From Bradyrhizobium sp. CB1717 (GTDB lineage: Bacteria; Pseudomonadota; Alphaproteobacteria; Rhizobiales; Xanthobacteraceae), in contig NZ_CP121666.1 of NCBI RefSeq assembly GCF_029714325.1, positions 1,612,001 to 1,676,000 on the forward strand: 64,000 nucleotides of DNA, in the 5' to 3' direction. Under the pieces are notes generated by a model. That model saw nothing but the letters and a program-made list of their open reading frames with translations. It was not told the origin of the DNA and did no database searches. This document shows positions 19,413 through 62,198 of the stretch, in pieces. A program made the position numbers and the translations under genes. Numbering within the stretch: position 1 is the stretch's first letter; each line of letters opens with the position of its first letter.

Positions 19413-19745
19413 TGCTATCCCTCGGATCAGCGCGGGCCTGTCGCGGATCAAGTGATGTGATTTGCGGAATCTGCGCAACGGGGTCGCGAGTCCGTCCACA
19501 AGCCAGGACTCGGTCGTCCACAGCTCATCTCCGCCACAATTGTTAACGTGGGAGTCGCGATCCGGACGGATGAGAACAAACCGGAATCGGATTCGAGCGG
19601 CTGGCGCCAATCGTTAATTCCGTCCCGCGAGGCCGCCCGCCACGATGGCATGGCACCATGCGCTTTCCCCATGGGGAACGCGCTTGCTGTCGCCGCCGGC
19701 CGGCGTCATATTTCCGGTCAGGCCGTTCATTCCGGACGGCCGATG

Positions 19746-19894
19746 TTCTCAGGGCGGGGTGAAAGTCCCCACCGGCGGTAAGGGCCGAAAGGCCCAAGCC
19801 CGCGAGCGCCTTCTCCGAGGTCTTGTCCGAAGGGAAGGGTCAGCAGATTCGGTGCAATTCCGAAGCCGACGGTTAAAGTCCGGATGAAAGAGAA
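19746..19894 (+). promoter_or_regulatory. FMN riboswitch (RFN element)
   Basis: All the conserved RFN blocks are present in order: TTCTCAGGGCGGGGTGAAAG, TCCCCACCGGCGGTAAGG, AGCCCGCGAGC, GGTCAGCAGATTCGGTG, AATTCCGAAGCCGACGGT, and TAAAGTCCGGATGAAAGAGA. The closing stem pairs TTCTC with GAGAA. It lies 83 bases before the ribH2 start codon. FMN binding should lower ribH2 expression. No strong terminator precedes the gene, so control may be by ribosome access. Confidence 0.96.
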
Positions 19895-19977
19895 CGGTCG
19901 GTGGCAGACGCATCGTGAGGATGCGGCTGTTTGTCGTTCCGTGTGCCCTGATTCTGGTCCTTGAACCGAGGAAAGCC

Positions 19978-50945: not shown

Positions 50946-52165
50946 AGATGATCGACTGCGTCGAGAACCGCCTCCTCACCTCGCGCCGCGGCCTTCTGCT
51001 CGGCGGCGCCTCCTTCGCGGCGTGGGCTTACTTGCCGAAATTCGCGCGCGCCGCTGGCGGGCGTGATGCCAGATTGATCGTCGTGATCCTGCGCGGCGCA
51101 CTCGACGGGCTCTCGAGCGTCGCGCCGCTCGGTGACCCCGATTACGCCGGCCTGCACGGTTCGATCGCCCTCACGGTCGATGGCCCGCATCCCGCGATCA
51201 TGCTCGACAGCTTCTTCGCGCTGCATCCGGCGATGCCGGAGTTCGCGCGCATGTATCGCGACAGGCATGCTGCGGTGATCCATGCGGTGGCGACGCCCTA
51301 TCGCGACCGCTCGCATTTCGACGGCCAGGACGTGCTCGAAAGCGGCTACGCCGGCCCGGGCCGCGTGCAGTCCGGCTGGCTCAACCGTGCGCTGGAGGCG
51401 CTGCCGCGCGGCGAGCGCGTTTCGAGTGGGCTTGCGGTCGGTCCGACCACGCCGCTGGTATTGCGCGGCAATGCGCCGACGGTCGGCTGGGCGCCGGTCG
51501 CGCTGCCGCAGGCCGACGACGACACCGCGATGCGGCTCGTCGATCTCTACCGACACCGCGATCCCGCGCTGGCCTCGGCGCTGTCGCAAGGCTTGCAGCT
51601 CGACAAGGTCGCAAGCGGCGACGACATGAAGCCGAAGGGCGGCAATCAGGTCGCGCAGATGCGCCAGGTCGCGCGCGGCGCGGCCAAGCTGATGGCGGCC
51701 GACGATGGCCCGCGCATCGCCGCGCTCGCCTTCGACGGCTGGGACACGCACGCCAATGAGGGCGGCCCCGTGGGGCGTCTCGCCTTCCTGCTCGGCGGGC
51801 TCGACGGTGCGCTCGCGGAATTCGAGAGCGGCCTCGGCGAGCGCTGGCGCGACACCGTCGTCGTCGTCGCCACCGAGTTCGGCCGCACCGCGCGCATCAA
51901 CGGCACCGACGGCACCGATCACGGCACCGGCACCATCGCGCTGCTCGCCGGCGGCGCCGTGAAAGGCGGCCGCGTCATCTCGGATTGGCCGGGCCTCAAG
52001 CTCGCGAACTTGTATGAGGCCCGTGACCTCAAGCCCACAACGGACCTGCGCGCGGTGATCAAGGGCGTGCTGCAGGACCAGTTTGGCCTGTCCGATCGTG
52101 TGCTGGCGGAGACGGTGTTTCCGGACAGCGCAGGCGCAAGACCGATGAAGGGGCTGGTGGCTTAA
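50942..52165 (+). CDS. DUF1501 domain protein, Tat-exported
   Basis: A 407-aa protein with a Tat signal (TSRRGLLLGGASFAAWAYLP, cut near ARAAGG). The DUF1501 fold is related to sulfatase/alkaline phosphatase proteins; conserved stretches are LIVVILRGALDGLSSVAPLG, YRDRSHFDGQDVLESG, AFDGWDTHANEGG, VVVATEFGRTARINGTDGTD and HGTGTIALLAG. Asp and His of DWDTH-like and GTDHG-like motifs could bind metal. It starts at ATG 50942, four bases inside the DUF1800 gene. Its stop TAA (52163-52165) lies in the CTTAACC that begins the repeat downstream. Confidence 0.93.
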   Translation: MKMIDCVENRLLTSRRGLLLGGASFAAWAYLPKFARAAGGRDARLIVVILRGALDGLSSVAPLGDPDYAGLHGSIALTVDGPHPAIMLDSFFALHPAMPEFARMYRDRHAAVIHAVATPYRDRSHFDGQDVLESGYAGPGRVQSGWLNRALEALPRGERVSSGLAVGPTTPLVLRGNAPTVGWAPVALPQADDDTAMRLVDLYRHRDPALASALSQGLQLDKVASGDDMKPKGGNQVAQMRQVARGAAKLMAADDGPRIAALAFDGWDTHANEGGPVGRLAFLLGGLDGALAEFESGLGERWRDTVVVVATEFGRTARINGTDGTDHGTGTIALLAGGAVKGGRVISDWPGLKLANLYEARDLKPTTDLRAVIKGVLQDQFGLSDRVLAETVFPDSAGARPMKGLVA

Positions 52166-52401
52166 CCCACCCCGCTCTTCTGCGGGGAGAGGTCGGATTG
52201 CCCCGGCGATGCGCAGCATCGTCCGGCGCGATCCGGGTGAGGGGCAGGGCACACTGTTGCCACGAACCAAATCCCTCCGACTCGCAAGACCATTGCGGTT
52301 GAGCGGACCGCATCTACAATTCACACCAAACTCGCGGAGACAGCCCCTCACCCCACCCTCTCCCCGTAAGAACGGGGCGATGGAGCGAGAGAGCGGTGCG
52401 T
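52161..52401. repeat. REP-like direct repeat, left copy, flanking a DUF559 gene
   Basis: This 241-bp unit is repeated at 52780-53001 in the same orientation. Both share CTTCTGCGGGGAGAGGTCGG, ATCCGGGTGAGGGGCAGGGC, TACAATTCA, AACTCGCGG, and AGCCCCTCACCCCACCCTCT, with a closing GCGGTGCGT. The first half ends GGGTGAGGGGC and the second half begins GCCCCTCACCC, its inverse. The DUF1501 stop codon lies within the first bases. Confidence 0.9.
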
Positions 52402-52842
52402 CCATCACGGGTGGGGGCAGGGCAATGCGCAGCCATAGCGAAAAAGTCATCCGACTCGCACGGCGCTTGCGTGCGGATCAAACAGATGCCGAGACCGTTC
52501 TCTGGAACCGCATTCGCAATCGGAGGATCGATGGGCAAAAATTCGTCAGGCAGGAGCCGATCATCGGCTACATCTGCGACTTCGTATGCCGCGAGAAACG
52601 GCTCATCATCGAAGTCGACGGTGGACAGCACAATGAATCCGCGGCAGATGCAATTCGTGACGAACGCTTGAGAGAGAAGGGGTACAAGGTGCTTCGCTTC
52701 TGGAACAACGATGTCCTTGGGAATATCGAAGGTGTTCTCACCGTAATTCAGGCTGAACTCGCGACGGCAGGAGGTGTGACTTAACCTCTCCCCGCACTTC
52801 TGCGGGGAGAGGTCGGATTGCGCAGCAATCCGGGTGAGGGGC
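52343..52842 (+). mobile_element. Putative REPtron-like unit: DUF559 gene inside REP-like termini
   Basis: A 500-bp unit bounded by an 11-bp terminal inverted repeat, GCCCCTCACCC at 52343-52353 and GGGTGAGGGGC at 52832-52842. Each end carries a hairpin (CCCCGTAAGAACGGGG; CCCCGCACTTCTGCGGGG). The gene 52425-52784 fills the interior almost completely. A gene-less unit with the same ends is at 55136-55306. I infer a mobile or formerly mobile unit; no target duplication is defined. Confidence 0.55.
52425..52784 (+). CDS. DUF559 endonuclease-like protein
   Basis: A 119-aa DUF559 protein of the PD-(D/E)xK nuclease-like clan, related in fold to very-short-patch repair nucleases. A helix with LRADQTDAETVLWNRIRNRR leads to the core: D52 (YICDFVC), then E63 and D65 in LIIEVDGGQH, and the closing strand YKVLRFWNNDVL. 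The active-site residues are intact, so an active nuclease is possible. ATG 52425 follows GTGGGGGCAGGGCA, which itself resembles the repeat sequence GGGTGAGGGGCAGGGCA; the TAA stop lies in the CTTAACC that begins the right repeat. Thus the gene is closely fitted between repeat halves. Confidence 0.85.
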   Translation: MRSHSEKVIRLARRLRADQTDAETVLWNRIRNRRIDGQKFVRQEPIIGYICDFVCREKRLIIEVDGGQHNESAADAIRDERLREKGYKVLRFWNNDVLGNIEGVLTVIQAELATAGGVT

Positions 52843-53001
52843 AGGGCATGCTGTTGCCAAGAGGGTAGTCCATCCGACTCCCACATTGACCATGCGCGCA
52901 TCACGCACTTCGCCTACAATTCAAACTGAACTCGCGGCAGCAGCCCCTCACCCCACCCTCTCCCCGTAAGAACGGGGCGAGGGAGTGAGAGGGCGGTGCG
53001 T
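52780..53001. repeat. REP-like direct repeat, right copy, flanking a DUF559 gene
   Basis: Second copy of the unit at 52161-52401, offset by exactly 600 bp at the GCCCCTCACCC mark (52943 against 52343). Differences are concentrated in the stem of the first half, where the left copy has a longer GCGATGCGCAGCATCG hairpin. Confidence 0.9.
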
Positions 53002-53035
53002 TCCTCACAATTGCCGCTTACAGGAGACACCACCC

Positions 53036-55135: not shown

Positions 55136-55306
55136 GCCCCTCACCCGGATTGGGCCGGACGATGCTTCGCGTCGCCGGGGCAATCCGACCTCTCCCCGCG
55201 GAAGGGCGGGGAGAGGTTAAGACAGCAAATGCTTGTTTGAGTGAGGGACGCACCGGTCTTTCGCTCCCTCGCCCCGCTCTTGCGGGGAGAGGGTGGGGTG
55301 AGGGGC
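55136..55306. repeat. REP-like unit without a gene, same ends as the DUF559 unit
   Basis: GCCCCTCACCC at 55136-55146 and GGGTGAGGGGC at 55296-55306 bound a 171-bp unit. Read on the minus strand it has the same two halves as the DUF559 unit, with GGTGCGTCC, then about 24 bases, then CTTAACC in place of the nuclease gene. It looks like an empty form. It accounts for most of 55029-55352. Confidence 0.85.
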
Positions 55307-62112: not shown

Positions 62113-62142
62113 ATCTGTCTCTCGCGCAGTGAGGGACGTACG

Positions 62143-62198
62143 CCTCTCTCACTCCCTCTCCCCGTTCTTACGGGGACAGGGAGGGGTGAGGGGCTGTT
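62143..62198. repeat. REP-like half-unit, family A
   Basis: CCCTCTCCCCGTTCTTACGGGG then AGGGGTGAGGGGCTG, a half-unit like those around the DUF559 gene, with the same GGTGAGGGGC end. It lies 30 bases after the EF-G-like stop. Confidence 0.8.

What the first reader, a model, noticed from the sequence alone, without database searches (positions are those of the whole stretch)
52161..53001. A DUF559 nuclease gene packaged between REP-like half-units: a possible REPtron analogue
Seen: a 119-aa PD-(D/E)xK nuclease-like gene (D52, E63, D65 intact) fills a 500-bp unit (52343-52842) with 11-bp inverted ends GCCCCTCACCC/GGGTGAGGGGC and hairpins at both ends. The whole lies between direct repeats of 222-241 bp. 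Start region and stop codon both overlap repeat sequence. A unit with identical ends but a short spacer in place of the gene lies at 55136-55306. Known: in REP/RAYT systems a transposase gene is flanked by inverted REPs and spreads them. Inference: here a DUF559 nuclease may mobilise or mark REP-like repeats in Bradyrhizobium.
Basis: partly seen in the sequence, partly recalled or inferred. Interest (0 to 1): 0.72.

Follow-up and report, generated by a model that had tools for sequence, protein, structure and literature searches.

The report
DUF559 nuclease paired with dedicated repeats
In many bacteria a small predicted DNA-cutting enzyme gene is wrapped in its own matching hairpin repeats, and gutted copies of the package lacking the gene also occur, which suggests that the enzyme may be what spreads this class of repeats.

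Summary
The window's 119-aa DUF559 (PD-(D/E)XK) gene lies between two kinds of hairpin-bearing repeat end, R and L. Four surveys (164 distinct DUF559 loci, Bradyrhizobium to other phyla) show the same packaging: a CCCTC-type hairpin lies within 200 bp of 148, against 0 of 30 HNH genes and 12 of 376 ordinary ORFs. Alphaproteobacterial genomes with a strong DUF559 usually hold at least two such hairpins (37 of 46); others rarely do (11 of 143). Intact R-gene-L units occur at the same site in three relatives. Gene-free R-spacer-L units keep pieces of the gene's first and last codons, as internally deleted, MITE-like derivatives would. Repeat subtype follows DUF559 clade. Sites are patchy between species; the gene is under purifying selection, catalytic residues intact. 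A parallel pairing appeared: a GIY-YIG nuclease packaged in CGTC-class REPs, a class reported to lack a dedicated transposase. Best reading: DUF559 is a non-homologous analogue of RAYT acting on its own repeats. Packaging, deletion derivatives and co-occurrence are shown; that the nuclease does the moving is inferred. No transposition was observed.

The parts
52166..52245 (+). R end, copy 1: hairpins and terminal GGGTGAGGGGC (52235-52245); begins at the stop of the DUF1501 gene
52246..52342 (+). Gene-free spacer A: keeps pieces of the DUF559 5' and 3' coding ends; internally deleted derivative
52343..52408 (+). L end, copy 1: GCCCCTCACCC and CTCTCCCCGTAAGAACGGGG hairpin (weak fold, z -1.3)
52409..52424 (+). 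Probable degenerate R terminus (GGGTGGGGGCAGGGCA) directly before the start codon; compare GGGTGAGGGGCAGGGCA|ATG in intact R-gene-L units
52425..52784 (+). DUF559 PD-(D/E)XK nuclease gene, 119 aa; D52 E63 D65 intact
52784..52842 (+). R end, copy 2: two hairpins (z -7.4) and free GGGTGAGGGGC tail; overlaps the gene's stop codon
52843..52942 (+). Gene-free spacer B: remnants TCCATCCGACTC (codons about 9-14) and ACAATTCAAACTGAACTCGCGG (last codons)
52943..53008 (+). L end, copy 2 (z -3.6)
55136..55306 (-). Second unit with the same GCCCCTCACCC/GGGTGAGGGGC ends, L-R order, no gene
62129..62196 (-). Further partial copy of the L end in the window (G000:C1:1674129-1674196)

Best explanation
The feature is one member of a widespread repeat-nuclease element. 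Unit: R end (hairpin(s) plus GGGTGAGGGG tail), then a small DUF559 PD-(D/E)XK nuclease gene, then L end (CCCCTCACCC plus hairpin). DUF559 clades have their own versions of the hairpin. The nuclease recognises and cuts its own ends, and host repair or recombination then copies or moves the bracketed DNA. Losing the middle of the gene gives short R-spacer-L units that can still be used in trans and that account for gene-free repeats. SHOWN: packaging, specificity, co-occurrence, clade-subtype match, deletion derivatives, patchy sites, purifying selection. INFERRED: that the ends are the enzyme's substrate, that it drives the spread, and the cut-and-repair route.
For: Inverted repeats bracket DUF559 (local-alignment score >=15) in 4/5 small genes of the own genome, 27/29 genus loci, 20/29 class loci with one per genome, 11/15 other Pseudomonadota, 6/10 further alpha loci and 65/80 named loci (4 of the 80 repeat earlier loci). 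Controls: 3/376 ORFs, 0/29 HNH. CCCTC-type hairpin within 200 bp: 84/88 DUF559, 0/30 GIY-YIG, 0/30 HNH, 12/376 ORFs; 68/80 named. Genomes with DUF559 at E<1e-20: 37/46 have >=2 hairpins versus 11/143 without, Fisher 4e-21; 28/34 versus 5/45 for genomes >=3 Mb. Repeat subtype on the DUF559 tree: 22 changes versus 44.9 shuffled, 0/500; Bradyrhizobium 3 versus 11.9, 0/500. Three intact R-gene-L units. Coding remnants in gene-free spacers: the gene's 5' piece beats all 1000 shuffles in 11 of 12 spacers, the 3' piece in 10 of 12. DUF1501-ABM site: 7 with the unit, 20 without, of 27 resolved. On a recF-region gene tree the ABM site changes state at least 5 times and the dnaN-recF site 15; on the ABM-downstream tree 6 and 12. 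Median dN/dS 0.08. The own genome's one Y1 transposase hit is weak and lies beside GTAG-type sequence.
Against: No transposition event, target-site duplication or near-identical recent copies were seen; the two window units are only 75% identical. Of the 12 gene-free spacers scored, 8 lie at the DUF1501-ABM site itself; the 4 elsewhere (L205-L208) have different middles, and only L205 keeps both coding remnants above every shuffle. The class-only clade-subtype test is weak (12 versus 15.1, 18/500). Nine strong-DUF559 genomes have no pattern match and seven without strong DUF559 have >=5; at least three of the nine carry a variant hairpin that the pattern misses (L066, L069, L075). The DUF559 domain in a longer gene (L006) and two small ones (L013, L071) lack the repeats. 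A Caulobacter DUF559 protein, VsrA, is tied to DNA damage in cells lacking a cytosine methylase and read as a Vsr-like repair enzyme (PMC12907096, passages).
Confidence: 0.6

Rival explanations
1. Homing-like cassette exchange. DUF559 cuts chromosomes at matching intergenic sites that lack the unit, and homologous repair from a donor swaps the whole intergenic block; the unit rarely jumps to new places. Repeats are cut sites or recombination tracts.
For: At DUF1501-ABM and dnaN-recF one repeat class excludes another: CCCTC-type only 7 and 10, CGTC-type only 18 and 13, both 0 and 0, neither 2 and 4, of 27 and 27. Two DUF559 clades occupy the same pheS-pheT gap in different species, among them the close relatives G000 and G058. 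One pheS-pheT gap is a clean 76-bp empty site. Most full gene-free spacers scored lie at one site.
Against: The own genome holds 112 core hairpins and all 60 genus genomes hold partial matches to R/L sequence, which needs movement to non-allelic places. The exclusion counts are not corrected for shared descent.
Confidence: 0.2
2. DUF559 is a host-serving Vsr-like repair or genome-guarding nuclease. The repeats are spread by something else and settle near it, or serve as its promoter, terminator or insulator.
For: VsrA of Caulobacter is a DUF559 protein needed for the SOS response of cells lacking ScmA (PMC12907096, passages). Strong purifying selection.
Against: Several divergent copies in many genomes, patchy presence, gene-free derivatives carrying gene remnants, and specificity of hairpin type to DUF559 over HNH, GIY-YIG and ordinary genes.
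Confidence: 0.13
3. Another enzyme (a RAYT/Y1 transposase, the GIY-YIG nuclease or an IS) moves these repeats; DUF559 is cargo.
For: GIY-YIG and Y1 genes occur in the own genome too.
Against: Each sits in another repeat class: GIY-YIG has 0/30 CCCTC-type and 26/30 CGTC-type; the own genome's only Y1 hit (E 3.8e-4) has GTAG-type flanks. IS elements were not surveyed.
Confidence: 0.05

Closest known systems
RAYT (TnpA-REP) and GTAG REPs/REPINs
   Same: Small nuclease-type gene bracketed by inverted hairpin repeats; gene-free paired repeats elsewhere in the genome (RAYT features partly from PMC3733652, partly recalled)
   Different: DUF559 is a PD-(D/E)XK fold, not a HUH tyrosine transposase; tail is GGGTGAGGGG, not GTAG; R and L ends differ; cutting and mobilisation untested
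CGTC-tagged REPs (Di Nocera 2013, PMC3733652)
   Same: Alphaproteobacterial palindromes, often in inverted pairs, found here at the same intergenic sites
   Different: Different hairpin, and here packaged with a GIY-YIG gene rather than DUF559
MITEs derived from insertion sequences
   Same: Internally deleted copies that keep both ends of a gene-bearing element
   Different: No recognised transposase; no target-site duplication found
DUF559/Vsr-like nucleases (VsrA of Caulobacter; PDB 3hrl; Rpn/YhgA proteins, recalled)
   Same: Same or related nuclease fold; 3hrl_A is the nearest solved chain by sequence (E 9.5e-21)
   Different: No repeat partnership in the passages seen; a repair role is proposed for VsrA
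Br-REP1/Br-REP2 of Bradyrhizobium (PMC5082802)
   Same: Intergenic repeats in the same genus
   Different: Different sequences; the word endonuclease does not occur in that text

Membership tests
DUF559 (PF04480) PD-(D/E)XK nucleases | Match to the family profile | tested here: met
   131 bits, cut-off 20.6
DUF559 (PF04480) PD-(D/E)XK nucleases | Catalytic D, E, D conserved | tested here: met
   D52, E63, D65 in 88/88
DUF559 (PF04480) PD-(D/E)XK nucleases | Nuclease activity | not testable with these tools
   needs protein
RAYT/REP system | Y1 (HUH) tyrosine transposase gene in the unit | tested here: not met
   The gene hits only DUF559 and, below cut-off, MTES_1575; the own genome's one Y1 hit lies elsewhere
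RAYT/REP system | GTAG tag beside the hairpin | tested here: not met
   Free tail of R is GGGTGAGGGGC
RAYT/REP system | Gene bracketed by inverted repeats that are dispersed in the genome | tested here: met
RAYT/REP system | Enzyme cuts its own REP | not testable with these tools
   needs assay
MITE (non-autonomous derivative) | Shares both ends with a gene-bearing element and carries an internal deletion | tested here: met
   13 gene-free versus 3 gene-bearing rows (L209 aligned only in part); coding remnants scored in 12
MITE (non-autonomous derivative) | Target-site duplication | tested here: inconclusive
   Sites without the unit mostly hold another repeat class; one clean empty site seen (L390); no duplication worked out
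Vsr mismatch-repair endonuclease | Linked cytosine methylase and TG-mismatch cutting | not tested
   none
Homing endonuclease | Lies inside an intron, intein or gene | tested here: not met
   Intergenic at the three sites compared

The most novel reading that the evidence does not exclude
Three unrelated small nuclease folds have each become the dedicated partner and mobiliser of one bacterial REP superfamily: HUH/Y1 (RAYT) with GTAG repeats, GIY-YIG with CGTC repeats, and PD-(D/E)XK DUF559 with CCCTC repeats. They compete for the same intergenic sites, where one class excludes the others.
Probability: 0.45. Interest if true: 0.92.

Novelty: new variant of a known kind. Interest (0 to 1): 0.85.

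Why it matters
How non-GTAG palindromic repeats spread is an open question: Di Nocera et al. [quoted passage not shown] This work names a testable enzyme for the CCCTC repeats (DUF559) and, as a by-product, for the CGTC repeats (GIY-YIG). It would also give a biological context to DUF559, a widespread domain of unknown function often annotated as Vsr-like, and would make RAYT/REP one instance of a general pattern.

Tried and rejected
Rfam scan at gathering thresholds: only an FMN riboswitch, no repeat family. The first flank test cut at stop codons missed many cases because reading frames run through the downstream repeat: IR>=16 in 2 of 5 own, 7 of 29 genus and 9 of 29 class loci, against 1 of 376 ORFs. 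It was replaced by a test from domain ends. R-spacer-L search by the 11-mer in 464 kb of own genome found few copies of this subtype; a genus-wide DNA search found more. My first shuffle test of the spacers included the repeat terminus and was weak at the 3' end of spacer A (24 against a shuffle maximum of 27); the coding-only test replaced it. My first wording, that one deletion was then copied to many places, was withdrawn: the shared middle belongs to copies at one site. No target-site duplication could be derived. Chance and generic repeat density rejected by ORF, HNH and reversed-pattern controls. RAYT as the mover rejected for the own genome. Not tried: structure prediction, fold search, viral or metagenome scans, the search for homologous proteins.

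Full report
CHECK OF THE OBSERVATION. The gene, its residues, the 11-bp ends, the direct repeats and the second unit at 55136-55306 are all there at the stated coordinates. The window lies at 1612001-1676000 of a 9.23-Mb single-contig genome; the closest relative among the 80 named loci kept is in Bradyrhizobium sp. C9, 74% identity. R copy 2 folds as two hairpins with a free tail (z -7.4), R copy 1 z -3.2; the two L copies z -3.6 and -1.3.

OWN GENOME. Six PF04480 matches: five small genes and one domain in a longer open frame (403 aa). The five small genes have palindromic repeats on both sides, of four different types. The one in the longer frame (L006) has none.

SURVEYS. The flank test aligned 300 bp upstream with the reverse complement of 300 bp downstream of the domain. 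Score >=15: own 4/5 (the fifth, the window gene, has a direct repeat of score 103), Bradyrhizobium 27/29, Alphaproteobacteria class sample 20/29 with one locus per genome, other Pseudomonadota 11/15, further alpha loci 6/10. A further set of 80 named loci, whose records include Pseudomonas, Rhodanobacter, Luteimonas, Gallionella, Chloroflexi, Omnitrophota and Nitrospirae, gave 65/80; 68/80 had a CCCTC-type hairpin and 4/80 had neither. Four of these 80 are identical, over 200 nt of the gene, to loci already counted, and all four were positive on both measures, so the distinct total is 164 loci, 148 with a CCCTC-type hairpin; closely related orthologues remain among them. Controls: 3/376 ORFs >=100 aa from 464 kb of the own genome and 0/29 measurable of 30 HNH genes. 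Genomes with a match: genus 59 of 60, class 64 of 190, phylum 86 of 249.

SPECIFICITY. CCCTC-type hairpins within 200 bp: DUF559 84/88, GIY-YIG 0/30, HNH 0/30, ORFs 12/376. CGTC-type, loosely defined: DUF559 17/88, GIY-YIG 26/30, HNH 3/30, ORFs 64/376. The patterns were written after seeing the 88 loci; the named loci were scored afterwards with the same patterns.

CO-OCCURRENCE. Pattern CCCTCYCCCN{2,9}GGGRGAGGG: 112 places in the own genome, 0 for the reversed pattern; in the class sample the reversed pattern is mostly 0, at most 48 (G115, where the pattern itself has 199). Over 189 class genomes (own genome left out), >=2 matches in 37/46 with DUF559 at E<1e-20 and 11/143 without; among genomes >=3 Mb, 28/34 versus 5/45. 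Exceptions both ways are listed. Relatedness was not corrected for.

ANATOMY AND DELETION DERIVATIVES. In L025, L210 and L161 the order is R, gene, L...GGGTGAGGGGCA(G/A)GGCA-ATG...gene...GAACTCGCGGAGGC-(A/G)GCCCCTCACCCC... (L161 has one extra G in the R tail), and the frame runs into L to a TAA in its hairpin loop CCCCGTAAGAA. All three lie at the DUF1501-ABM site. Thirteen gene-free rows share R, L and pieces of the gene (L209 aligned only in its L part). Scoring coding sequence alone against 1000 shuffles of each of 12 spacers, the gene's 5' piece is above all shuffles in 11 (not L207) and the 3' piece in 10 (L206 7/1000, L208 76/1000). Eight of these 12 lie at the DUF1501-ABM site, beside the gene, and share a similar middle; four lie elsewhere (L205-L208) with different middles, of which L205 keeps both pieces. 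So gene-gutted derivatives exist at several sites, but I cannot say that one deletion spread.

SITES. DUF1501-ABM: of 30 loci 27 were resolved; 7 hold the DUF559 unit (three with R-gene-L alone, the others with added gene-free units) and 20 do not, with gaps of 79-179 bp. dnaN-recF: DUF559 units, GIY-YIG units with CGTC repeats, CGTC or GTAG-like repeats alone, and one internally deleted GIY-YIG unit, L127. pheS-pheT: DUF559 matches in 18 of 30 loci (one partial), of two clades with different hairpins; one clean 76-bp empty site (L390); one 109-bp remnant that appears to keep the gene's 3' end (L395); most of the other ten could not be resolved. On a recF-region tree the ABM site changes state at least 5 times and the recF site 15; on the ABM-downstream tree 6 and 12. 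These are gene trees, not a species tree. CCCTC and CGTC repeats never share a gap: 7/18/0 of 27 and 10/13/0 of 27, the other 2 and 4 having neither by pattern; not corrected for descent.

CO-EVOLUTION AND SELECTION. Hairpin subtype on the DUF559 tree of 88 loci (84 labelled): 22 changes versus 44.9 shuffled; Bradyrhizobium 3 versus 11.9; outside Bradyrhizobium 19 versus 28.4 (each 0/500); class only 12 versus 15.1 (18/500, weak). Subtypes are my own pattern classes, the tree is short (108 columns, 45 of 85 forks open), and orthologues at one site inflate the Bradyrhizobium test. Median dN/dS 0.08 in four clades (15 of 21, 25 of 36, 48 of 55 and 1 of 1 pairs usable; dS is near saturation).

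MECHANISM. Most likely DUF559 nicks or cuts its own ends and repair copies the bracketed DNA, gene-free units being served in trans. The same-site exclusion points to a homing-like exchange as the main rival. None of this was observed directly.

A SECOND SYSTEM. The GIY-YIG protein (PF01541, E 3e-15) has matches in 67 of 190 class genomes, some of them weak or distant; inverted repeats bracket it in 20 of 30 loci, many with GTC-tagged hairpins and CCA tails as described for CGTC REPs (PMC3733652 section 6).

LITERATURE. Searches 'DUF559' (14 papers), 'COG2852/PF04480/YcjD' (20), RAYT/REPIN (22), Bradyrhizobium palindromes (5), GIY-YIG with 'repetitive extragenic palindromic' (0), Vsr or very-short-patch-repair with extragenic palindromes (0 and 0), and three mixed searches of which I saw only the top 6 of 1,899, 12 of 113 and 10 of 40 showed in their listings no paper that links DUF559 or GIY-YIG to REPs. 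Only openly licensed PMC papers are held; subscription papers and preprints were not searched. Seen: PMC3733652 abstract, sections 6 and 7 and passages; PMC5082802, PMC12907096 and PMC12306157 passages; the rest listings only.

Noticed in passing
L116, L119, L120, L128, L129, L137, L138, L143 (dnaN-recF gap): A roughly 95-aa GIY-YIG nuclease gene bracketed by inverted CGTC-class REPs; in the class sample 26 of 30 such genes have CGTC-type hairpins.
   Followed up: partly
L127:1352-1500: Same ends as the GIY-YIG unit but the gene is gutted: a deletion derivative parallel to the DUF559 ones.
   Followed up: partly
DUF1501-ABM and dnaN-recF gaps, L115-L144 and L231-L257: One repeat class per gap: CCCTC and CGTC types do not occur together in 27 and 27 gaps. 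Unexplained.
   Followed up: partly
pheS-pheT gap, L371-L400: Two DUF559 clades with different repeats occupy the same gap in different species, even in the close relatives G000 and G058.
   Followed up: partly
L003, downstream end of the gene: The reading frame runs through the downstream repeat, giving a repeat-coded tail (PPSLTLPHKGGG).
   Followed up: no
L200: The own genome's only, weak Y1 transposase hit lies beside GTAG-type sequence, as expected of a RAYT.
   Followed up: partly
window 19741-19899: FMN riboswitch (RF00050, 113.8 bits).
   Followed up: no
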